In this document: positions 29,882-42,773 of the stretch, one piece after another
Layout: each line of letters opens with the position of its first letter
Numbering within the stretch: the first letter of the stretch is position 1
Assembly: GCF_030157465.1 (NCBI RefSeq)
Contig: NZ_JAOAUU010000069.1
Span: 1-56,514, forward strand
Direction of reading: 5' to 3'
Origin: Zoogloea sp.
GTDB lineage: Bacteria; Pseudomonadota; Gammaproteobacteria; Burkholderiales; Rhodocyclaceae
Length of the DNA stretch: 56,514 nt
Made by a program: the position numbers and the translations under genes
Notes under the pieces: model-generated
Databases searched by the model: none
Told to the model about the DNA's origin: nothing
Seen by the model: only the letters and a program-made list of their open reading frames with translations

Positions 29882-30926
29882 GACTGAAGTGCAACACCCC
29901 GATTTGGTAGGGTGTATGCATGGGAAATCACTACAGCCAGTTGTCGATGGACGAACGTAATCAGATTCATCGGTGCAGCAATGAGGGATTGAGTCTTCGG
30001 GCAATTGCCCGAAGACTCAATCGGCCGACCTCCGCAGTGTCGCGCGAAGTGGCGCGGAACACGGTGGGCAAGAGCTACGATGCCGCCCGTGCCGAGCGCG
30101 CGACGCTGGCGCGCAGGCGGCGCGGAACGATCAAGCTGAAGAGCGGTTCTGTGCTGCTCAACCGGGTTCGCGCGCTGATGGCCGAGGGCTGGTCGCCGGA
30201 GCAGGTTGCGGGCAGACTGCGCCGGATGAACCCTGACGATCCTGCCTTGCACGTCTCACACGAAACGATCTACTGCGCCATCTATGCCGTGCCACGGGGC
30301 GAGCTGCGCGCCGAACTCATCGCCCAGCTGCGCTTCGCCCACAAGGCACGCATGCCTCGCGCGCGAGGCCAGGACCGGCGCGGCACGCTGCCGAACATGA
30401 CCTCCATTCACCAGCGCCCGATTGAGGTGGCGGCCCGCCTCGTGCCAGGGCACTGGGAAGGCGATCACATCAAGGGGCCGGGCAACCGCAGTTCGGTGGG
30501 CACCCTGGTCGAGCGCAAGAGCCGCTACCTGATGCTGGTCAAGCTGCGTGACGGCTCGGCCGAGGCCACTCTGGAAGGCTTCACGCGCAAGTTCCGCCAT
30601 GTCCCGCTCGCCATGAAAAAGTCGCTGACTTACGATCAGGGCAGGGAGATGGCCCGCCACGAGATTCTCGCCAAGCGGGTCAAGATCGACGTCTATTTTG
30701 CCGACCCGCACAGCCCCTGGCAGCGGCCGACCAACGAGAATACCAACGGCTTGATCCGCGAGTATCTTCCCAAGGGCCTGGATTTGGCGCCGATCTCCCA
30801 AGGCTACCTCAACGCAATTGCCCGACAATTAAACAACCGCCCGCGCAAATGCCTCGACTTTGAAACACCGGCGGAGGTCTTTGCGAGGGAAATCATGAAC
30901 TTTCAACCCGGTGTTGCACTTCAGAC
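29882..30926 (+). mobile_element. IS30-family insertion sequence
   Basis: Near-terminal inverted repeats CTGAAGTGCAACACC (29884-29898) and its complement (30910-30924) bracket a single transposase gene; they extend imperfectly by two bases each side. About 1.05 kb is the normal size for IS30. The right inverted repeat lies inside the last codons of the transposase. I see no clear target-site duplication, so exact ends are uncertain by a few bases. Confidence 0.88.
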
Positions 30927-30930
30927 TTGA
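29920..30930 (+). CDS. IS30-family transposase
   Basis: A 336-aa DDE transposase, full length and uninterrupted, so probably active. The N-terminal helix-turn-helix (LSMDERNQIHRCSNEGLSLRAIARRLNRPTSAVSREVARN) binds the ends. The catalytic acids fall in GHWEGDHIKG, TYDQGREM and the ENTNGLIREYLPKG segment, the IS30 hallmark. It ends in the right inverted repeat. Confidence 0.95.
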   Translation: MGNHYSQLSMDERNQIHRCSNEGLSLRAIARRLNRPTSAVSREVARNTVGKSYDAARAERATLARRRRGTIKLKSGSVLLNRVRALMAEGWSPEQVAGRLRRMNPDDPALHVSHETIYCAIYAVPRGELRAELIAQLRFAHKARMPRARGQDRRGTLPNMTSIHQRPIEVAARLVPGHWEGDHIKGPGNRSSVGTLVERKSRYLMLVKLRDGSAEATLEGFTRKFRHVPLAMKKSLTYDQGREMARHEILAKRVKIDVYFADPHSPWQRPTNENTNGLIREYLPKGLDLAPISQGYLNAIARQLNNRPRKCLDFETPAEVFAREIMNFQPGVALQT

Positions 30931-35423: not shown

Positions 35424-35693
35424 ATGCACGTTTTCTACGAAAACCTGGCCACGGATGACGCCATCGAAATCGAACAACTGTCGCGCCTGATGTACGAAAT
35501 CCGCGTCTCCCGCGACGCGCTGCTGGCCCAGCTCGGCGCCGCAAGCCCCGAGCAAGCCCTCGCCCGCATCGCCGCTGGCGAGCTGCCCGAACACCCCGCC
35601 TACGAGCACTACCTGTCACTCCGCACCCTCGCAGAACTGCACGGCCAGGTTCGCGCCGACCTCGCCGAGCGGCTCAAGGAGACGAACACATAA
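35424..35693 (+). CDS. Small unknown protein in the nos operon (1)
   Basis: An 89-aa acidic helical protein (MHVFYENLATDDAIEIEQLSRLMYEIRVSRDALL...) without signal peptide, membrane segment or metal motif. It starts 2 bp after nosL and its stop overlaps the next ATG (TAATG), so it is certainly part of the operon. I do not recognise the family. A cytoplasmic role in the same pathway is inferred only from position. Confidence 0.75.
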   Translation: MHVFYENLATDDAIEIEQLSRLMYEIRVSRDALLAQLGAASPEQALARIAAGELPEHPAYEHYLSLRTLAELHGQVRADLAERLKETNT

Positions 35694-36064
35694 TGAGCAC
35701 CCACATCGACCTCGCAGCCCGCATCGAAGAAACTTTCGGTGAACACCTGGAAAGCCCGGTGGACGTGAAGCTCGACGCCCTCATCGTGCAGCTCGACAAC
35801 GGCGCCACCCTCGAAGCCCGCATCGCCGCCCCCGACGCCTACGCCATCGCCTGGGCCTGGGGCGAGGCCGAACTGCGCATCGACACCGCCCCGCTGCACG
35901 AACAACTGGAAACCTTCCCCAACCACCTCCACGCCGCCGACGGCAGCCTGCAGCGCGACCCGCTAACCCATTGCAACGCCGCCCCGTGGGACAACCTGCG
36001 CGCCGTCATCGAAGCCATCCTCATCGACCCGCTGCTCGAAAACCTCACCGGAGCCGCATCATGA
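35693..36064 (+). CDS. Small unknown protein in the nos operon (2)
   Basis: A 123-aa acidic protein (MSTHIDLAARIEETFGEHLESPVDVKLDALIVQLDNGATLEARIAAPDAYAIAWAWGEAELRIDTAPL...). The middle looks like beta strands, and a C-terminal helical part holds a single Cys (HCNAAPWDNLRAVIEAIL). It is coupled at both ends by overlapping start and stop codons. No signal peptide is seen and I do not recognise the family. Confidence 0.75.
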   Translation: MSTHIDLAARIEETFGEHLESPVDVKLDALIVQLDNGATLEARIAAPDAYAIAWAWGEAELRIDTAPLHEQLETFPNHLHAADGSLQRDPLTHCNAAPWDNLRAVIEAILIDPLLENLTGAAS

Positions 36065-36558
36065 TCCGCCGCCTGCTGCCCCTGCTCACCGCCGCGCTAA
36101 TGCTCGGCCAGCCCCTCACCACCAGCGCCGCCGATCTATCACCCCAATACGTACAGCGCTCGACCCGCTGCCCGGTGTGCGGCATGTACCCCTACCGCAC
36201 CCCCCAATGGACGGCCCAGATCGTCTTCAACGACCAAACCGCCAGCAGCTTCGATTCACCGGTAGACCTGTTCCGCTTCCTGAACAACATGGTGGTCTTC
36301 GACAAACAGCACAAGCCTGCCGACATCGGCGCCATCTACGTCGCCGACTACAGCACCAAAGCCTGGGTGGACGCCAAAAAAGCCTTCTTCGTGATCAGCT
36401 CGAAAGCCCTCGGCCCAATGAACGACCCCAACCTCCCCGCCTTCGCCACCCGCGAAGCCGCCGACGCCCACATCAAGGCACAAGGCGGCAAGGTGCTGCT
36501 GTTTGGGGAGGTGACGCGGGATGTCATCAAGAGCCTGGCGGGTGGGCACAATCATTGA
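36061..36558 (+). CDS. Second NosL-family protein, with CPVCGM metal motif
   Basis: A 165-aa exported protein with a Sec signal (residues 1-23, LLPLLTAALMLGQPLTTSAA) but no lipobox Cys, so it should be soluble in the periplasm. The metal motif is C37-PVC40-GM42, unlike the Cys/Met site of the first NosL. The family body is plain: VDLFRFLNNMVVFDKQ, AIYVADYSTKAWVDAKKAFFVISSKALGPM, GGKVLLFGEVTRDVI. It ends in GGHNH. It closes the operon before a strong terminator. It may be a second copper carrier or a copper acceptor for a different client. Confidence 0.88.
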   Translation: MIRRLLPLLTAALMLGQPLTTSAADLSPQYVQRSTRCPVCGMYPYRTPQWTAQIVFNDQTASSFDSPVDLFRFLNNMVVFDKQHKPADIGAIYVADYSTKAWVDAKKAFFVISSKALGPMNDPNLPAFATREAADAHIKAQGGKVLLFGEVTRDVIKSLAGGHNH

Positions 36559-36889
36559 GGTAGCAATGGCAGGCTGATGCGGTCGAGAAGGCGGTAAGTG
36601 GCTTTCTCTTCTCCGGGTGCGTTCGGAGAACCTGGCACTGAAAAAATAAAATCGGGCTGGTCATCCTTTAAGACAGGATGACCAGCCCGATTTTATTTTG
36701 GGGAATTAAAGAGGCTGATTGAGTGAGAGGTTATTTCGGCAGGGATTTGTGATGATGCAGACTGAAATTCCGCGACCCTAAGCGGAAGTAGCTGGTTTGA
36801 AGAAGCAGACGTTCAGGAAACGCAGAAGTGAGCGGACTGCGCGGCTTTTGTGCAGGTCCACTCGACTGCCGGGTTGGGCTTCAATCTGT
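36559..36889. other. Gap holding the nos terminator; border to low-G+C island
   Basis: Apart from the terminator I see no gene or repeat. Base composition drops just after this stretch, so it marks the left edge of the accessory segment. Confidence 0.6.
36643..36699. terminator. Very strong bidirectional terminator
   Basis: A perfect 24-bp stem (36643-36666 with 36676-36699, 9-nt loop) begins with an A/T-rich base and ends in TTTTATTTT, so it works on both strands. It closes the nos operon. Confidence 0.92.
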
Positions 36890-37678
36890 TCATGAGAGTT
36901 GCATCGCGGAACTTGCCTTTATCGCAGACGTAACGTCCGGGCGTCTCGGCGTAATAACTGCGTCGAACATCTCTTGGATAAATGGGGCAACCCAATACTG
37001 CGAATCCTCCTCCGGTTGCATGCCGCACTCAAGTGCATCCATGTGGTCACCGGACATCATGTAATGATCGTTCAAGAAGAAAATGTAGCCTAGGTGAAGA
37101 ATGAATAGGTCTTGCGCGTCCTCAGAAAAGCGGTCAAGCCACCAGCCCCGATTTTCTATGTACACTTCATTGTCATTCAGCATTGCGTGGCGATAAAAAT
37201 TGTAATGCGTGTGATCGTTACACCTGTCGCGGAGCCTCTTGTATCGATCATCGATACCAAACACGCCATTGATTGGTTTGAGGGCGTCGGAGGTCCTTAT
37301 GTATTGGGACATCACGCGGTATTCCGGTAGCTTCTCTTTTCCTTGGAGCCAGTTGCTTATCTTTTCGACGATGAAATTTTCGATGCTGAAATTATTGCGA
37401 AGATACAGATTCGAATAGATATTAATTACTGCGGAGTCGTGGTACTTCCGAAGCAATGTATAGGCGTCGTTGATGCGACCTGCGAGAAGAATTGTTCTCA
37501 TCGACTCCAATGTACCCTGCATTGAGGAATAAACGTAAGTGTCGATATTGCAGATGGCCTTTGTACCCATAGTCGCGAACGAGAAAACGGACATGGAAAA
37601 TTGCCCGTAGAAATCCATATAACGCTGAAGTTCAGCGAATACACGATGCTTTTGGTATGTTTTGTCTGTTACTTGCAC
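36890..37678 (-). CDS. Unknown 262-aa protein in the accessory island
   Basis: A soluble, helical, Tyr- and Asn-rich protein (MQVTDKTYQKHRVFAELQRYMDFYGQFSMSVFSF...). Features that can be seen are SMQGTLESMRTILLAGRINDAYTLLRKYHDSAVINIYSNLYLR near residues 50-95, a basic RYKRLRDRCNDHTHYNFYRH stretch near 140-165 and a hydrophobic LFILHLGYIFFLNDHYMM helix near 190. I recognise no domain. G+C is low here (about 37% in the line from 37381), unlike the flanking core genes, which points to recent transfer. A defence role is possible because of its neighbours but not shown. Confidence 0.7.
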   Translation of the reverse strand: MQVTDKTYQKHRVFAELQRYMDFYGQFSMSVFSFATMGTKAICNIDTYVYSSMQGTLESMRTILLAGRINDAYTLLRKYHDSAVINIYSNLYLRNNFSIENFIVEKISNWLQGKEKLPEYRVMSQYIRTSDALKPINGVFGIDDRYKRLRDRCNDHTHYNFYRHAMLNDNEVYIENRGWWLDRFSEDAQDLFILHLGYIFFLNDHYMMSGDHMDALECGMQPEEDSQYWVAPFIQEMFDAVITPRRPDVTSAIKASSAMQLS

Positions 37679-37714
37679 GGGTGATGCTCCGCATTAATTG
37701 AGGCCCAACAGTCC

Positions 37715-37745
37715 GTAGGTCGGGTTAGCGCAGCGTAACCCGACA
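37715..37745. repeat. REP palindrome, left of the RAYT gene
   Basis: GTAGGTCGGGTTAGCGCAGC followed by GTAACCCGACA folds into a GTCGGGTTA/TAACCCGAC hairpin. Its inverted partner lies at 38303-38333. Confidence 0.85.
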
Positions 37746-37759
37746 TCGCACCATCAGCC

Positions 37760-38296
37760 CTACTCATGCCCGACGCCTTCAAAGCACATTGAATCGCCCC
37801 CCCAATCCGACGCATAAACACCCGCTTTCACAAAGCGGCCGAAGCTGGAGTAAGGCCAATCCAGCGGTGATCGGGCCAGGCCGTGTTTGACCGGATTGTA
37901 ATGGATGTAATCGACATGGCGGGCAAAGTCGGTTTCATCGCGTATCTGATGTTCCCAATATCGATGTTGCCAGATGGCTTGTTCGCCTTTCTTCAGCCGC
38001 GTTGCGTCGGGTGTGCGCCGGAGTGTGTCCGGGCAATGTTTGGAAAACCAGGTTTTAATCAGGCGCCAACGGGTGGAGAAGTCGGTATCGTCAGGCGGTA
38101 AAGTCCAGATGCAATGAAGATGATCGGGCATGACGACGATAGCATCGATTTCGAATGGACGCGATTGACGAACAGATCGGAAAGCATTGCGCAGGACATC
38201 GACGGCTTCATCCGAAGCCAGAATGGGGCGGCAGCGATCCGTCACAAGAGTAAAGAAGAAGGTGCCGCCGGGAACGATAGAGCGCCGATATTGCAT
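37760..38296 (-). CDS. REP-associated tyrosine transposase (RAYT)
   Basis: A 178-aa Y1-type HUH nuclease. The HUH motif is in VVMPDHLHCIW, and the catalytic tyrosine is likely in DYIHYNPVKHG or the HRYWEHQIRD segment as in TnpA_REP proteins. Such single-copy domesticated transposases are thought to spread the REP hairpins that flank them, and here two REP copies sit in inverted orientation on each side. The frame is intact. Confidence 0.93.
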   Translation of the reverse strand: MQYRRSIVPGGTFFFTLVTDRCRPILASDEAVDVLRNAFRSVRQSRPFEIDAIVVMPDHLHCIWTLPPDDTDFSTRWRLIKTWFSKHCPDTLRRTPDATRLKKGEQAIWQHRYWEHQIRDETDFARHVDYIHYNPVKHGLARSPLDWPYSSFGRFVKAGVYASDWGGDSMCFEGVGHE

Positions 38297-38302
38297 GGGA
38301 AA

Positions 38303-38333
38303 TGTCGGGTTACGCTGCGCCAGCCCGACCTAC
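38303..38333. repeat. REP palindrome, right of the RAYT gene
   Basis: TGTCGGGTTACGCTGCGCCA followed by GCCCGACCTAC is an inverted, slightly diverged copy of the palindrome at 37715-37745. Confidence 0.85.
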
Positions 38334-38552
38334 TTAAAACTGTTGCATCCATCGGTTGAATCCACAACCCTAATGAGTCATTCGTCTTTCGACGCTATTA
38401 AGGTCGGCTATGCAACGAACCACTGACGTTAGGTTGCATGCATACAGAGTTGCTCGGAGCGATGAATCTGGGCGTCAGAGTGAAGTCCTGATAGTGCCCA
38501 GATTGTTTTCCAGAGACGGACAAAGATTAATATTGAGCGAGAGAGATACGCC

Positions 38553-39032
38553 CTAACCGTTCCGCTGCTTAATCGCAGCTTCTACCCAGCCCGACAGATT
38601 TGTCGCAATATCGTTGTAAGCATCGCTCGATTTTGGGTCATAGACCTTCGGCACAACCGCTTTGCCATCCAGCGTAAAATTGATCGCGTCAAATGGGTTT
38701 GTCCCCTTAGAGCTTTTTCCATTGTTCGGACAGGTCAGATTATGAATATGAATCCCCAACAGACCTTTTCCATCTTTCCATGCTTTTTTAATTTCGTAAT
38801 TGACCCAAGGTCGTTTGTGGGTATCGGTGCCTATCAAGACGATCACACATGACTTTCCAAACATGTTGTCATCGATCCACTTTTCGACGGCAGCATTGCC
38901 TTTTTTCTTCACTTCCTCCCAATTATTTGGTGATACCGGCGTATTGCCTTCAACAACCCCCATGTTTCTCACTTGTTGCACGCGCATAACGTCGTTATCA
39001 AAGTGAAAACTATAGAATATCTTTCGTGCCAT
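38553..39032 (-). CDS. thsB: Thoeris ThsB-like TIR protein (DUF1863 type)
   Basis: A 159-aa TIR-fold enzyme. It begins MARKIFYSFHFDNDVMRVQQVRN, the signature of the MTH538/DUF1863 TIR group used by Thoeris ThsB. The catalytic glutamate is likely E80 in KRPWVNYEIKKAW, matching the Glu in B. cereus ThsB (E85). On phage infection ThsB is known to make a cyclic ADP-ribose isomer from NAD+ that switches on ThsA. I chose the ATG at 39032, one base after the thsA stop; the frame is open eight codons further but those overlap thsA. Confidence 0.93.
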   Translation of the reverse strand: MARKIFYSFHFDNDVMRVQQVRNMGVVEGNTPVSPNNWEEVKKKGNAAVEKWIDDNMFGKSCVIVLIGTDTHKRPWVNYEIKKAWKDGKGLLGIHIHNLTCPNNGKSSKGTNPFDAINFTLDGKAVVPKVYDPKSSDAYNDIATNLSGWVEAAIKQRNG

Positions 39033-39033
39033 A

Positions 39034-40464
39034 TCATTTCCCCAGTCGTTGAACAATCTCGATCAGTTTTTTCACCAGCTCGGTTCGAGGGACGGCTGGA
39101 TTTGAAAGCTCTTGGATCATCGGCACAATCCATTCGACGCCTGTGTAGTACTCGTCTGGCGCTCCTAACACTTGAGCCGCAATTTTCTCGGCAGCGAATC
39201 CAGTGACTCCTACTGGTACGGGAATGCGGCCGTGGCTTACGGCAATCTCAAATTCCCGGATCATTCCATTTGCCACAACGATGCTTCCATCAGTCGCAGC
39301 TTTGTTGCCAAATATGAATATTGCGATGCCTGATAATGCGATCATCCTTTGGCGATACTCTTCCCACAAACTCGGGAGGTCTTGGTCTCTCGTGGGAAAT
39401 TGTGGAAAGGGGCGCATTACTAATTGCTCCTCCGAGTATTTTTCTGGATTTGCGTAAATCGCCTCCAAGGCACCATTGATCACTGCACTACCAATTCCCC
39501 ACCCGAACCCATTCACGACCCGCAGGTCGGATCGAATAAGACTTCCAGTAAGTGAGTGCACAAAATTTAGGGCTTCCTGGCGCTCCCAGGCGCCGTACGT
39601 CTCTGCGCTGCCAGCGATAAAGACTGTCTTCTTTAAAAACCTAGCTTTAATGGCTTCCAAGATTTTGGGGATATCAGAGTACTCGTCAATCAAAAGGGTT
39701 TGGATGCCGTATCGCTTTAAATCATCAACACGCAAGTCTTGCTTTCTTGCCCTGTATTTATTTAGCTCCTCGTCTTCCGCAGTATCGATTTTTTCCTTTC
39801 TCATGAAGCAATAGTGATTTCGCTTTGTGCTTGTATGAAGTCGACTGAGAACGTAATCGAGGTTGGGGTCGGTGAAACTAAAACCAATAAATAGGAAGGT
39901 TTTTGAAACCAAATCACCCATTAAGGCGGTTACAAACGGAGCGTGAGATTGGTAGTACTGCTCATACTGTTCCTTATACAGAATTGCTTTATTGGCGTGA
40001 TGCACATCGCCGTGCATCTTGTAAACGACCACATCTCTTTTCGGCCGGGTTGTACTTAGCTGGTCAACATCGTGCTTAACGTCCGGCACTTTGAAGGCCG
40101 CTTTGATCGCATCCTCAATTAGCGTGTCGTAATTGGTAGTCCAATATGTCCTTATCGGAAGTTGAGCCAGAATTTCGTGAGTGGGTGAGGATTCAGCTTG
40201 GTGAGAAAACTCCTCCACAATGCGCCGGGTGAGCTTTGCCGAGCCTCTCAATTGGTTGACGTGGAATTGAGCAAGAGAGATAAGGTCCTGCTCGCGGTCG
40301 ACATCGAGTCCAATTTCTGACGCGATATCACGCAGCAGCTCAGGCCAATCTACATAGCCCGAGCCCTTCGACATGCCCGCACCTGCGAATACGGCCGCAT
40401 TGCCAGCATCTAGATCTTTTGCAAAGTCTCTGATGAAGGCTTCGACTTCGTTAGAAAATGACAT
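39034..40464 (-). CDS. thsA: Thoeris ThsA-like NADase (SIR2 + SLOG/STALD)
   Basis: A 476-aa effector, the same length as B. cereus ThsA. The SIR2 domain (about 1-270) has FAGAGMSKGSGYVDW, the catalytic asparagine N111 in WTTNYDTLIEDA and histidine H151 in VYKMHGDV, equivalent to N112/H152 of the characterised protein. The C-terminal SLOG-type sensor (about 285-476) starts TVFIAGSAETYG and contains VNGFGWGIGSAVINGALEAI and IFIFGNK; it binds the ThsB signal, after which the SIR2 domain destroys NAD+ and the cell dies or stops growing. GGAGGCAGG precedes the ATG at 40464. Confidence 0.95.
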   Translation of the reverse strand: MSFSNEVEAFIRDFAKDLDAGNAAVFAGAGMSKGSGYVDWPELLRDIASEIGLDVDREQDLISLAQFHVNQLRGSAKLTRRIVEEFSHQAESSPTHEILAQLPIRTYWTTNYDTLIEDAIKAAFKVPDVKHDVDQLSTTRPKRDVVVYKMHGDVHHANKAILYKEQYEQYYQSHAPFVTALMGDLVSKTFLFIGFSFTDPNLDYVLSRLHTSTKRNHYCFMRKEKIDTAEDEELNKYRARKQDLRVDDLKRYGIQTLLIDEYSDIPKILEAIKARFLKKTVFIAGSAETYGAWERQEALNFVHSLTGSLIRSDLRVVNGFGWGIGSAVINGALEAIYANPEKYSEEQLVMRPFPQFPTRDQDLPSLWEEYRQRMIALSGIAIFIFGNKAATDGSIVVANGMIREFEIAVSHGRIPVPVGVTGFAAEKIAAQVLGAPDEYYTGVEWIVPMIQELSNPAVPRTELVKKLIEIVQRLGK

Positions 40465-40793
40465 CCTGCCTCCTGCCTTCCCGCGACCAAATAGCACGGG
40501 GATGCTATGAATATATGGAAAGAGACAAGGCTACGCGTTTTGCATCATTAATTCAATAAAAACTGCCCATAGCATTACCCCAAACGCATACTCTCAGTAG
40601 AGGGCTATGACAGTGACCGATTTCTGAAACGTCCGCTGCCTGTGGCCATGCTGACGTTCAAATGTATAGCTTCAGGGGGCCGGCGAGAGGCCGCTTCTGG
40701 CCGATAGCTATCACCCTCCTATCCGCCATCTATTCAATCCCAACCCCCGACCAGCCCAATCCGCACCGCCCGGGGTTCGCGACGCTTCATTTT
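40465..40793. other. Gap upstream of the Thoeris operon
   Basis: No supported gene. It should contain the minus-strand promoter of thsA-thsB; the AT-rich part at 40500-40575 is the likely place, but I see no convincing -35/-10 pair. Confidence 0.4.
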
Positions 40794-41168
40794 TTACCCC
40801 TCGCTCGCCCCCTTCTTCACCCCTCTATTCCCTGTCTTTTTCTCGGACTTCTTCTTCAGCCCCAGCGCCGCCAGCTCGTCGGAGTCTTCGCCGTAGATGG
40901 CGCGGACTTGGGTTTTGGCGCCGGTGATGGCGTCGTGGAAGGTGCTTTCGGTGATGGCGAGGGCGTCGCGGGCGGCGGCGAGGGCTTTTGCGGCGATGGC
41001 TTCGGCTTCGCGATGGGTGCGGTAGGCCTCGTAGGCGCGGGTGACGGCCTCGAGGGTGTAGGCGTCATTGGGCGGTTTGTAGCCGGTGATGGTCTTTAGG
41101 CCGAAGTAGGCATCTTCGTCGGCGCGAAGGACGGACGCGGGGACGCCTTTGAGCTGGATTTTCTGCAT
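40794..41168 (-). CDS. Conserved protein of unknown function (C-terminal LGLKKKSE motif)
   Basis: A 124-aa helical protein. I chose the ATG at 41168 (MQKIQLKGVPASVLRADEDAYFGLKTITGYKPPNDAYT). Similar hypothetical proteins are, to my knowledge, found in many bacteria; they share the SVLxADEDAY start, the FHDAITGAKTQVRAIYGEDSDELAALGLKKKSE end and a variable helical middle. The tail is basic. Function unknown. The longer frame upstream lacks family-like residues. Confidence 0.75.
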   Translation of the reverse strand: MQKIQLKGVPASVLRADEDAYFGLKTITGYKPPNDAYTLEAVTRAYEAYRTHREAEAIAAKALAAARDALAITESTFHDAITGAKTQVRAIYGEDSDELAALGLKKKSEKKTGNRGVKKGASEG

Positions 41169-41562
41169 GATGGTTTCCGTTGCGGGTTGAACGTGTCGTG
41201 GGCTACCACGCTCAAATCTTATAGTTGCATGACATTTTGTGAAATATGTCATTCGATATAGCAAGGCGGAAAAACCCCAAAAATATTCAGCATCTGGCAC
41301 GGGTGGCGCGGCTCGCGGATGACAGCGGCGGCTTGGGGGATTCTGCGGCAAACGGGCGAGCCCGGCGTGAGAACGCGCGGGGTTTGTGCGCTGACGCATG
41401 AACACGCTGTGCGGTGGTAGGGCTGTGTGCAGCTTGCGCAGCGCTTGTAGCGGGGTGGCAAGTTTTTCGCGCGGCGGGCGATTGCCTTATTCCTTGGCCG
41501 GAATGCCTTCTTTGGTGGGTGCGCGCGAACCTGTGAGGGGCGGATGGCTTTTGTTCAGCCCC
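41169..41562. other. Gap before the 21-bp repeat array
   Basis: No supported gene. A plus-strand frame opens at an ATG at 41398 and runs into the repeat array, but its first 58 codons show no domain and may be non-coding. Confidence 0.4.
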
Positions 41563-41793
41563 GAAATAAAGATGTTTGCACCCGAACATCTTCATTCTGG
41601 CCTCGAACATCTTTTGTTTGCATTCGAACATCTTCATTCGGGCAGTGAACATCTTTTGTTTGTGGCCGAAATGCTTTTACTCACCCAAGAAATGCTTTAT
41701 TCGAGACGCGAGCAGCTTCTACCTGGCCATGAGCAGCTTTATCTCAGCGCTGTACATCGTCTTTCGCGGCGCGGAATCTTTCATTCCAGATCA
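41563..41793 (+). repeat. Tandem array of eleven diverged 21-bp units
   Basis: Units start at 41563, 41584, 41605, 41626, 41647, 41668, 41689, 41710, 41731, 41752 and 41773, all exactly 21 bp. Most begin GAACATCTT, GAAATGCTT or GAGCAGCTT, followed by a more variable 12 bases in which units 1 and 3 (TCT/TCG GGC) and 2 and 4 (TTG TTT GYN) alternate. The first and last two units are weaker. Spacing is conserved more strictly than sequence, as expected if the reading frame matters. Confidence 0.88.
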
Positions 41794-41880
41794 CGCATTC
41801 GTGCTTTTTACGGCGAGGGCTTTTCTGAGACTTCTCGCGCCCTTTCCTCACGCATCTCACTGATGCAAGGATCTCCATGA
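41572..41880 (+). CDS. Possible heptad-repeat protein encoded by the 21-bp array
   Basis: From the ATG at 41572 a 102-aa frame reads the array as seven-residue units: EHLHSGL, EHLLFAF, EHLHSGS, EHLLFVA, EMLLLTQ, EMLYSRR, EQLLPGH, EQLYLSA. Glu in position 1 and Leu in position 3 are kept while the rest varies, the pattern of a helical repeat. The frame continues 40 residues past the array. The opposite strand is also open and reads MFTARMKMFECKQKMF..., so the coding strand is unsure. The ribosome binding site is weak, and an in-frame ATG at 41398 would give 160 aa. Confidence 0.4.
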   Translation: MFAPEHLHSGLEHLLFAFEHLHSGSEHLLFVAEMLLLTQEMLYSRREQLLPGHEQLYLSAVHRLSRRGIFHSRSRIRAFYGEGFSETSRALSSRISLMQGSP

Positions 41881-41983
41881 TGATCTGCTGCGGGAGCGCC
41901 GATGCGCCGTGGAGATCGGGCCACCGCTCCGCTCTTGTTCCCGCATGACCCACCGAAGGCGCCTGCCATCCCAGGCACCAGAC

Positions 41984-42014
41984 GAAAAAAACCCGGCCGC
42001 AATTGAGGCCGGGT
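41984..42014 (-). terminator. Rho-independent terminator after the cytochrome c gene
   Basis: ACCCGGCC (minus strand) pairs perfectly with GGCCGGGT around an 8-nt loop and is followed by a run of T. It lies 46 bp after the cytochrome stop. Confidence 0.9.
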
Positions 42015-42060
42015 GGTGGCGCGCGGGGGGATGCGCGCCGAGGTGAAACAGCAGTGAGGC

Positions 42061-42456
42061 TTATTCGGACTTGGCGACCATGAAGTCGACGATTTCCTTG
42101 ACTTCGTCGTCCTTGAGCGCGGGGTTGCCGCCCTTGGCCGGCATGGCGCCCTTGGCGCCGTTGTAGCCTTCGGTGGCGTGCTTGTAGAGGGTGTCCTTGC
42201 CCTGGGCGATGCGCGGGCCCCAGTCGGCCTTGTCGCCAAGCTTGGGCGCGCCGGCCACGCCGGTCTGGTGGCACATGGCACAGGTTTTCTTGAACAGCTC
42301 GGCGCCCTTGCCGGCGTCGACGGCAGCCTGGGCGACGGGAGCCGGGGCTGCCGCAGCGGGTGCAGGTGCCTGGGCTTCGGTCTTGGGGGGTTCGGATTTG
42401 CCGCAGGCCGCCAGGAGGCCAACGAGGATCAACGGGAGCAGTTTGCTTGCACGCAT
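42061..42456 (-). CDS. Cytochrome c5-type lipoprotein
   Basis: A 131-aa protein. The ATG at 42456 begins MRASKLLPLILVGLLAAC, a lipoprotein signal with Cys18 as the lipid anchor. An Ala/Pro-rich tether of about 30 residues leads to a single class I haem domain with C59-AMC62-H63 and the distal Met in GAMPAKGGNPAL. It is probably an electron carrier anchored to a membrane, facing the periplasm. The partner is unknown. Confidence 0.92.
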   Translation of the reverse strand: MRASKLLPLILVGLLAACGKSEPPKTEAQAPAPAAAAPAPVAQAAVDAGKGAELFKKTCAMCHQTGVAGAPKLGDKADWGPRIAQGKDTLYKHATEGYNGAKGAMPAKGGNPALKDDEVKEIVDFMVAKSE

Positions 42457-42773
42457 GGAATTTTCTCTTTTATCTGGATTGGGGGAGGCTTCGCCCATGG
42501 AGCGAAGCATGGGTTAATCGTAACCCGCCCCCCCGCCCGGCTCATTGACCCGAATCAAATTGCCGGTTTTGGGCTTCAATTCAGGCTCTGTCATCGTTGA
42601 ATATGGACATTCATCAAGCCGACGATGCGCCCTGTGCGGTACAGGGGCCATGTGGGGGCGACTTCAGTCGCCCATCCGCGCGTTGAATCACGACCATTCG
42701 TTGATCGGAGTCCGCGGGCGACTGAAGTCGCCCCTACAAGTCGCCCCCACATGAAGCGTGCCCGTAAAAGCCC
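42457..42773. other. Gap with a REP pair
   Basis: Apart from the cytochrome promoter region, this holds the first of five paired REP palindromes (42649-42753). Confidence 0.5.
42649..42753. repeat. Paired REP palindromes, copy 1
   Basis: Two palindromic units, GGGGCGACTTCAGTCGCCC near 42655 and its inverse ending in CCCCTAC at 42737, flank a spacer of about 42 bp. An outer perfect 16-bp inverted repeat (CATGTGGGGGCGACTT at 42649-42664, complement at 42738-42753) encloses the pair. Confidence 0.88.

What the first reader, a model, noticed from the sequence alone, without database searches (positions are those of the whole stretch)
38553..40464. Complete two-gene Thoeris anti-phage system on a low-G+C segment
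ThsA is the canonical 476-residue SIR2-SLOG protein with N111 and H151 in place. ThsB is a DUF1863-type TIR with its glutamate (E80) and starts one base after the thsA stop. The surrounding DNA is clearly less G+C-rich than the core genes and is bordered by a transposase with its REP hairpins. The system is known in principle; its presence inside a denitrifier chromosome next to the nos cluster is notable, as is the question of which cyclic ADP-ribose isomer it uses.
Basis: partly seen in the sequence, partly recalled or inferred. Interest (0 to 1): 0.75.

Follow-up and report, generated by a model that had tools for sequence, protein, structure and literature searches.

The report
Thoeris defence pair in swappable slot
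The window carries an ordinary, intact Thoeris anti-phage system; what is unusual is where it sits, right behind a small unknown gene and a 21-base repeat array that recur at many sites in this bacterial genus where foreign DNA, often defence genes, differs between species.

Summary
Confirmed: 38553-40464 (minus strand) holds an intact two-gene type I Thoeris system. ThsA (476 aa, SIR2+STALD) and ThsB (159 aa TIR) hit the PADLOC models at E 2.3e-198 and 2.2e-71. Catalytic N111/H151, ligand residues R371/K388/E404 and TIR glutamate E80 are kept, so 3'cADPR signalling is the best guess. As a system this is ordinary.

The new part is the setting. The pair is cargo (about 36700-40809) behind a 124-aa gene of no known family (40794-41168, "marker") that follows a 21-bp tandem array. 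This module recurs up to 8 times per genome in 15 of 23 genomes of the genus. Arrays precede 47 of 55 copies (31 of 280 control windows). DNA behind the marker is low-G+C in 23 of 52 copies (6 of 240 controls). In 26 of 29 comparisons of matching markers, homology stops at the marker's end. Cargo includes Gabija, PtuA, Cas9, bSEFIR, a DRT and a second Thoeris. Raw PADLOC enrichment is weak (p 0.09); counting only specialised systems, p 0.002. How cargo is exchanged and what the marker does are unknown.

The parts
39034..40464 (-). thsA, 476 aa: SIR2-like NADase (N111, H151) + C-terminal STALD/SLOG sensor (R371, K388, E404)
   Evidence: PADLOC ThsA E 2.3e-198; Pfam STALD 2.2e-72 and SIR2_2 5.5e-29; PDB 8wc0 E 1.1e-191 and 6lhx E 7.2e-138; residue mapping
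38553..39032 (-). thsB, 159 aa: ThsB-type TIR with F6 and E80; starts 1 base after the thsA stop
   Evidence: PADLOC ThsB E 2.2e-71; Pfam ThsB_TIR 1e-24; PDB 8wcf E 3.6e-63, 6lhy E 4.3e-19
37760..38296 (-). REP-associated tyrosine transposase (RAYT), 178 aa
   Evidence: NCBIfam NF047646 E 1.5e-60
37715..37746 (.). REP arm, inverted partner at 38302-38333
   Evidence: 94% complementary 32-nt arms
38302..38333 (.). REP arm, inverted partner at 37715-37746
36890..37678 (-). 262-aa ORF of unknown function, distal cargo gene
   Evidence: no PADLOC, Pfam or NCBIfam hit at E 0.01; relatives on two plasmids, Acidithiobacillus caldus 74% (two pieces) and Ca. Megaera 47%
40794..41168 (-). 'marker' gene, 124 aa, C-terminal GLKKKSEKK motif, multi-copy in the genus
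   Evidence: 63 rows in 15 of 23 genus genomes; alignment of 56 copies; no PADLOC, Pfam or NCBIfam hit at E 0.01
41573..41785 (.). degenerate 21-bp tandem array upstream of the marker
   Evidence: TRF periods 21/42/63; direct-repeat family with 21-nt spacing
36700..40809 (.). approximate span of the exchangeable cargo at this site, from comparison with genome G003
   Evidence: homology to L115 ends 15 bases before the end of the marker stop and resumes at the hairpin beside the nosL-like gene
36643..36699 (.). perfect 25-bp inverted repeat with 7-nt loop, terminator-like, at the far edge of the cargo
   Evidence: similar sequence in G003
36061..36558 (+). NosL-type gene, conserved neighbour of the slot
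   Evidence: Pfam NosL; found in 20 of 23 genus genomes
42061..42510 (-). cytochrome c gene, conserved neighbour of the slot on the other side
   Evidence: Pfam cytochrome c; match in 22 of 23 genus genomes, two of them only at 44-48% identity and one cut by a contig end

Best explanation
This is an intact type I Thoeris abortive-infection system. Inferred from the characterised family: on phage infection ThsB, a TIR enzyme, makes a cyclic ADP-ribose isomer (most likely 3'cADPR); this binds the STALD pocket of ThsA, whose SIR2 domain then destroys cellular NAD+ and stops phage production. Shown here: the pair is part of about 4.1 kb of low-G+C cargo placed directly behind a small gene of unknown family that is preceded by a 21-bp tandem array. 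That array-plus-marker module recurs at many sites in the genus. Where matching markers of different species were compared, the module is similar while the DNA behind the marker usually differs, and it is often a different defence gene. Inferred: the module marks sites that tolerate and exchange cargo, most simply by homologous recombination between the conserved module on one side and core genes on the other, since no integrase or flanking direct repeat was found around this cargo.
For: Thoeris: PADLOC/Pfam/PDB matches; catalytic and pocket residues kept (against residues named in PMC10022894 and PMC7272460, passages); thsB lies within about 0.7 kb of thsA in 16 of 17 related loci elsewhere (the exception, L008, ends 268 bases past thsA). 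Acquired: ThsA is in only 2 of 100 genomes searched (own included) and the other (G005) is 48% identical, whereas other genera have up to 76%. Slot: the NosL-like and cytochrome c neighbours are 251 bp apart in G009 but 5.5 kb here. Module: best lag 21 or 42 in 47 of 55 upstream regions against 31 of 280 control windows, with at least 50% identity in 38 against 1; both copies in another genus also have the array. Cargo: downstream 2 kb below 0.56 G+C in 23 of 52 against 0 of 120 plus 6 of 120 controls. Homology ends -34 to +167 bases from the marker stop in 26 of 29 comparisons of matching markers. Cargo includes Thoeris twice, bSEFIR, DRT UG17, PDC-S06, a SIR2 protein matching the Argonaute-associated models, HEC-01B, Cas9, PtuA, GajA+GajB and PDC-S20. 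Both ThsA genes found in the genus lie behind markers.
Against: No activity was tested. Raw PADLOC counts at E 1e-20 do not separate cargo from control well (at least 12 of 52 loci against about 10 of 80 regions, p 0.09); the clearer figure (11 of 52 against 3 of 80, p 0.002) rests on my setting aside housekeeping-like matches in the controls, and the 20 cargo proteins scanned singly were picked by eye from 136. 29 of 52 marker sites do not have low-G+C DNA behind them. In 13 of 29 comparisons homology also stops just upstream of the array, so the module is not a clean one-sided boundary. TIR_2 domains are hardly concentrated at markers (2 of 119). 8 of 23 genus genomes have no marker. RAYT genes are also concentrated behind markers (6 of 52 against 0 of 80 controls), so another mobile feature shares these sites.
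Confidence: 0.85

Rival explanations
1. The array-plus-marker module is itself part of a mobile unit: array, marker and cargo jump together into a site.
For: At the nosL-cytochrome c site 12 of the 13 other genomes with both neighbours on one contig have no marker. In 13 of 29 comparisons sequence differs on both sides of the module. The window's marker and the G003/G014 markers at the same site are only 54-56% identical while the NosL-like gene is 80-81%, and a G003 marker at another place is 62% identical.
Against: In the tree, most supported small groups join single copies from different genomes rather than several copies of one genome, and a shared far flank was seen for 11 of 16 groups. 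The window's marker groups with the G003/G014 markers of the same site and with the G003 copy L113 (support 99/94). No end repeats at this site.
Confidence: 0.2
2. The RAYT/REP element next to thsB, or relatives of it, moved the Thoeris genes; the marker is incidental.
For: A RAYT with inverted REPs lies about 0.26 kb downstream of thsB. RAYT matches stand behind 6 of 52 markers, against 1 of 55 upstream stretches and 0 of 80 control regions; a REP 13-mer occurs behind 12 of 56 markers and in 0 of 40 controls.
Against: The RAYT and REPs lie on one side of thsAB only and do not enclose it. The other Thoeris of the genus (L165) and 46 of 52 markers have no RAYT match behind them.
Confidence: 0.08
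3. Low-G+C DNA simply collects at permissive intergenic sites, and the marker/array is just another accessory repeat family tolerated there, with no role in exchange.
For: Raw PADLOC enrichment is weak (p 0.09); 29 of 52 marker sites lack low-G+C DNA; RAYTs share the sites; homologous recombination through core flanks would suffice without any marker.
Against: Low-G+C DNA is one-sided, behind the marker (23 of 52) rather than far upstream (3 of 51); breakpoints cluster at the marker stop in 26 of 29 comparisons.
Confidence: 0.45

Closest known systems
Type I Thoeris of Bacillus cereus MSX-D12 (ThsA 6lhx/8bto, ThsB 6lhy/9b7d)
   Same: SIR2-STALD ThsA (219 of 463 aligned residues identical) with N112/H152, R371, K388, E403 equivalents; DUF1863-type TIR ThsB with F6 and E85 equivalents; adjacent genes
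   Different: Short ThsB (159 aa against 193-194 aa in the solved chains); a single thsB here, the only other ThsB_TIR match in the own genome being weak and on another contig
ThsA/ThsB pair of PDB 8wc0 / 8wcf
   Same: Closest solved relatives of both proteins by sequence (E 1.1e-191 and 3.6e-63)
   Different: I found no paper describing that structure: a search for these PDB codes returned one paper, on human FAM118 sirtuins (listing only)
Core defence hotspots of Pseudomonas aeruginosa (cDHS1, cDHS2; PMC10250203, abstract read)
   Same: Conserved flanks enclosing many different defence systems across strains
   Different: Two loci in one species (median 26 and 6 kb). Here many small slots per genome share a paralogous marker gene and repeat array. 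I did not read the full text, so a similar module there is not excluded
Escherichia coli defence-island integration hotspots (PMC10121019, passages read)
   Same: Fixed sites, variable defence cargo, many empty sites
   Different: That paper ties islands to mobile elements, and 18 of its 41 hotspots lie in tRNA loci. Here no integrase was found among the cargo genes of this site
RAYT/REP elements
   Same: The window's transposase and its inverted REPs; RAYT matches behind 6 of 52 markers
   Different: Lies inside the cargo and does not enclose thsAB

Membership tests
Type I Thoeris | ThsA with SIR2-like domain and STALD/SLOG sensor domain | tested here: met
   PADLOC ThsA full length 2.3e-198; Pfam STALD 243 bits (cut-off 24), SIR2_2 101.5 bits (cut-off 24.5)
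Type I Thoeris | SIR2 NADase catalytic residues (N112, H152 of B. cereus ThsA) | tested here: met
   N111 and H151 aligned; residues named in PMC7272460
Type I Thoeris | ThsB of the ThsB TIR family with catalytic glutamate (E85 of B. cereus ThsB) | tested here: met
   Pfam ThsB_TIR 87.3 bits (cut-off 21.2); E80 aligns with E85 (E85Q described in PMC10022894)
Type I Thoeris | thsA and thsB adjacent | tested here: met
   1 base apart, same strand; thsB near thsA in 16 of 17 related loci
Type I Thoeris | cADPR-isomer pocket (R371, K388, E403) | tested here: met
   R371, K388, E404 conserved; reported to coordinate 3'cADPR
Type I Thoeris | NAD+ depletion and protection from phage | not testable with these tools
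   needs plaque and NAD+ assays
RAYT | REP-associated tyrosine transposase with inverted REP copies | tested here: met
   NF047646 over its cut-off; 32-nt inverted arms on both sides
Integrative element (integrase plus att repeats) | integrase gene in the cargo | tested here: not met
   none among the five proteins scanned, which are the four cargo genes and the marker; cargo at other sites was not searched for integrases
Integrative element (integrase plus att repeats) | direct repeats at both cargo ends | tested here: not met
   the only direct-repeat family in 36500-42150 is the 21-bp array (seeds of 10, length 18 or more)
Defence hotspot | same flanks, different cargo in related genomes | tested here: met
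   nosL-cytochrome c site; of 16 further groups of matching markers, 11 show a shared far flank in the fetched stretch, and in 8 of these 11 homology also breaks at the marker
Defence hotspot | defence genes more frequent than elsewhere in the genome | tested here: inconclusive
   raw p 0.09; specialised systems only p 0.002 (11 of 52 against 3 of 80), which needs judgement about cross-matches

The most novel reading that the evidence does not exclude
The 21-bp array and the 124-aa marker protein form a dedicated, previously undescribed chromosomal module that makes and maintains cargo-exchange sites. The protein binds the self-complementary array next to its own gene and thereby fixes, silences or promotes exchange of the foreign DNA behind it, giving one genus several interchangeable 'plug-in' defence slots per genome.
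Probability: 0.25. Interest if true: 0.85.

Novelty: new variant of a known kind. Interest (0 to 1): 0.55.

Why it matters
The Thoeris pair itself adds one more member. The setting could matter more: the defence hotspots in the two papers I looked at are recognised by core flanking genes or tRNA sites. Here a recognisable sequence module (small protein plus 21-bp array) points to cargo sites across a genus, and the module also occurs in one other genus, so the unknown genes behind the other markers become candidates for new defence systems. It also makes a mechanism testable: whether a chromosomal protein and its array help to keep, silence or exchange foreign DNA.

Tried and rejected
Integrase or att-type integration: no integrase among the cargo genes here and no direct repeats at its ends. 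Rfam families in 36-42.5 kb at gathering threshold: none. A shared motif near the left junction (about TCGGCCAGAAGCGG): 9 hits in the first 400 bp behind 56 markers against 3 in 280 kb of control, but I made the pattern by looking at those junctions, so it is only a lead. Conserved promoter upstream of the marker: only a ribosome-binding site stands out. Tandem Repeats Finder as array test: periods near multiples of 21 in 51 of 56 upstream stretches but also in 56 of 160 control windows at these lax settings, so the lag test is the one to trust. Structure of the marker: AlphaFold model with a long helix (pLDDT 87.5, pTM 0.60), no Foldseek match in the PDB. SIR2_2 domains: 4 of 45 in the genus lie behind markers, p 8e-6; leaving out the two ThsA genes that prompted the test, 2 of 43, p 0.0065; the test was chosen after seeing SIR2 cargo. 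TIR_2: 2 of 119. Literature: searches for the C-terminal motif, Accumulibacter defence hotspots and RAYT with defence returned no paper; searches on marker/tandem-repeat hotspots returned 7, 15 and 32 papers, of which I saw 7, 10 and 8 titles and abstract beginnings, none describing the module. These cover open-licence PMC papers only. The organism was not identified by any search; Accumulibacter is a recalled guess only.

Rows dropped: 7 short or partial marker rows of 63 were left out of the 56 copies; the array test used 55 of 56 (600 or more upstream bases), the cargo tests 52 of 56 (1500 or more downstream bases), and the marker tree 54 of 56. The groups of matching markers were drawn up by me from sequence similarity. 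Loci L213-L215 were fetched and not analysed.

Full report
Observation. thsA (40464-39034) and thsB (39032-38553) are open, intact and on the minus strand, with one base between the thsA stop and the thsB ATG. G+C over the pair is about 0.46-0.48, against about 0.63-0.66 in the genes on either side. The window is an entire 56,514-base contig of a 4.7-Mb, 174-contig draft genome.

Identity. ThsA matches the PADLOC ThsA model over its full length (E 2.3e-198) and Pfam STALD and SIR2_2. ThsB matches PADLOC ThsB (E 2.2e-71) and Pfam ThsB_TIR. The closest solved proteins are 8wc0 (ThsA) and 8wcf (ThsB), followed by the B. cereus proteins. Mapping the printed alignment onto B. cereus numbering gives N112=N111, H152=H151, R371=R371, K388=K388, E403=E404, and 219 of 463 aligned residues identical. 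ThsB E80 aligns with E85. PMC7272460 (passages read) shows N112A and H152A abolish NAD+ cleavage. PMC10022894 (passages read) states that R371, K388 and E403 coordinate 3'cADPR, and uses E85Q as the dead ThsB. So an active NADase effector and an active TIR are expected, and 3'cADPR is the most likely signal. None of this was tested biochemically.

How it got here. Among 100 genomes searched (own included) only the window's genome and one other of the same genus (G005) have a ThsA at E 1e-30, and the G005 protein is 48% identical. The 17 related loci found in named genomes, by a search that reaches close relatives only, include Aquimonas (76%), Methylomonas (67%), Burkholderiales, Pseudomonas and Bacteroidota. 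Of these 17, 16 have thsB within about 0.7 kb of thsA, the exception ending 268 bases past thsA, and none has the marker described below in the stretch held. Horizontal acquisition is the simplest reading.

The slot. The genes on either side are a NosL-type gene (36061-36558), matched in 20 of 23 genomes of the genus, and a cytochrome c gene (42061-42510), matched in 22 of 23, two of them only at 44-48% and one cut by a contig end. They are convergent neighbours on one contig in 13 of the other genomes: 251 bp apart in G009, about 1.5-2.8 kb in 11 genomes, where the DNA is G+C-rich, and 7.1 kb in G003. G003, and G014 whose site appears split over two contigs, carry low-G+C DNA (about 0.41) of other content there and a marker; the other 12 linked genomes have no marker there. 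Comparing the window with G003, homology stops 15 bases before the end of the stop codon of a 124-aa gene (40794-41168) and resumes at a perfect hairpin (36643-36699) beside the NosL-type gene. The cargo at this site is therefore about 36700-40809: thsA, thsB, the RAYT with its REPs, and a 262-aa ORF with relatives on two plasmids.

The marker module. The 124-aa protein has no match in PADLOC, Pfam or NCBIfam at E 0.01. It is repeated in the genus: 63 rows in 15 of 23 genomes, 0 to 8 per genome. The 56 near-complete copies align well and share a C-terminal Y-G-x-D/N-S ... G-L-K-K-K-S-E/D type of motif; in an alignment of 30 copies Y30, G93, G103, K105, K106 and S108 are invariant. In 249 genomes of the family, 9 have it: 7 of the genus and 2 of one other genus. 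In 369 genomes of the class only the own genome and one weak partial match appear. One 32% match with no listed gene lies on a Nostoc plasmid.

Upstream of most copies is a degenerate tandem array with a 21-bp period. The best lag in the 1 kb upstream is 21 or 42 in 47 of 55 copies against 31 of 280 control 1-kb windows from the same genomes; with at least 50% identity it is 38 against 1. Tandem Repeats Finder with lax settings reports periods near multiples of 21 in 51 of 56 but also in 56 of 160 control windows. Both copies in the other genus have a clear array. The arrays are self-complementary: of 38 strong arrays, 25 fold with z below -2, against 0 of 40 controls. Unit sequences differ from site to site. 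Sites for a dimeric DNA-binding protein are one reading; hairpins are another.

What lies behind the marker. The 2 kb downstream is below 0.56 G+C in 23 of 52 copies, against 3 of 51 far-upstream stretches, 0 of 120 first-control stretches and 6 of 120 second-control stretches. I compared markers that match across genomes, 28 pairs in 16 groups plus the window with G003. Homology ends between -34 and +167 bases from the marker stop in 26 of the 29; in the other three it ends at +273, +1163 and +1413. A shared far flank lies within the fetched stretch in 11 of the 16 groups. On the other side homology also ends just upstream of the array in 13 of the 29, continues in 12, is mixed in 3, and is cut by a contig end in 1. 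In the marker tree most supported small groups join copies of different genomes. So, where it could be followed, the module is mainly shared while the DNA behind it changes. The clearest example is G005 and G009: closely related markers and the same far flank, with Thoeris in G005 and an unrelated 749-aa protein in G009. RAYT genes are another recurrent feature: 6 of 52 downstream stretches, 1 of 55 upstream, 0 of 80 controls.

Cargo content. I picked 20 of 136 cargo ORFs by eye for single scans. They gave bSEFIR (L120), DRT UG17 (L133), PDC-S06 (L137), a SIR2 protein of the Argonaute-associated models (L140), HEC-01B (L147), Cas9 (L150), PtuA (L152), GajA and GajB side by side (L157), PDC-S20 (L163), a type II helicase model (L155), a weaker PDC-M40B match (L142) and a weak ThsA-model match to a SIR2 protein (L113). 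Seven gave nothing at E 1e-8: L115, L141, L158, L161, the first protein of L163, L166 and L123. Pfam adds SIR2 with a STAND NTPase (L113), a patatin (L141), a PLD/NgoFVII-like nuclease (L161, borderline) and DUF4365 (L123). With the two Thoeris systems, at least 11 of 52 loci hold a specialised defence protein at E below 1e-60. Controls are less clean than this sounds. In batch scans 136 cargo ORFs (52 loci) matched 420 PADLOC families at E 1e-5 and 100 control ORFs (40 regions) matched 31. A second control of 98 ORFs (40 more regions) matched 7 families at 1e-20. Counting any match below 1e-20, cargo is at least 12 of 52 loci and control about 10 of 80 regions, from family counts since distinct control proteins are not listed (p 0.09). 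Counting specialised systems only (control: Cas1 and two DpdF matches), it is 11 of 52 against 3 of 80 (p 0.002); I judged ShosA, PsyrA, dGTPase, RtcR, MzaA and mad2 matches to be housekeeping-like or weak, from recall.

Mechanism. Thoeris: infection, then ThsB-made cADPR isomer, then ThsA activation, NAD+ loss and abortive infection; every step is inferred from the family. Slot: I favour exchange by homologous recombination between the conserved module and core genes beyond the cargo, because no integrase or terminal repeat was found at this site. What the marker protein does is open. Its model is mostly one long helix (residues 39-92) with a low-confidence basic tail and no PDB match, which would suit a dimeric DNA-binding protein but does not show it.

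Verdict. The repeated array-plus-marker module with changing cargo behind it is the part worth following.

Noticed in passing
window 36890-37678 (-): 262-aa ORF with no family match in PADLOC, Pfam or NCBIfam; relatives on an Acidithiobacillus caldus plasmid (74%, two pieces) and a Ca. Megaera plasmid (47%). Possibly another cargo gene with a role in defence.
   Followed up: partly
L150:3091-6564: A 1157-aa Cas9 lies behind a marker copy in genome G018; whether Cas1/Cas2 and a CRISPR array are there was not checked.
   Followed up: no
L165:3150-5970 (G005): A second, unrelated Thoeris in the genus, order thsB-thsA plus an extra TIR gene, behind another marker copy.
   Followed up: partly
L166:4137-6386 and L115:3989-5347: Large low-G+C cargo proteins (749 and 452 aa) behind markers with no PADLOC or Pfam match: candidate unknown defence genes.
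   Followed up: partly
L154, L130, L159, L139, L161 (downstream of the marker): RAYT genes or fragments recur behind markers (6 of 52 with the window, 0 of 80 controls); why these two features share sites is unexplained.
   Followed up: partly
window 35693-36064 (+): Small gene inside the nos region with a borderline Pfam TumE (toxin) match, 23.9 bits against a cut-off of 23.4; its neighbour at 35424-35693 has no Pfam match.
   Followed up: no
G000:C22:12404-12727 (L082:3352-4737): A second TIR-domain protein in the own genome (461 aa, N-terminal TIR), on a contig with no thsA or marker match.
   Followed up: partly
window 29920-30930 (+): Transposase-like gene (HTH_38 + rve domains) upstream of the nosD end of the nos genes; none of the ORFs scanned at 31.1-36.6 kb is nosZ, though not every ORF there was scanned.
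   Followed up: no
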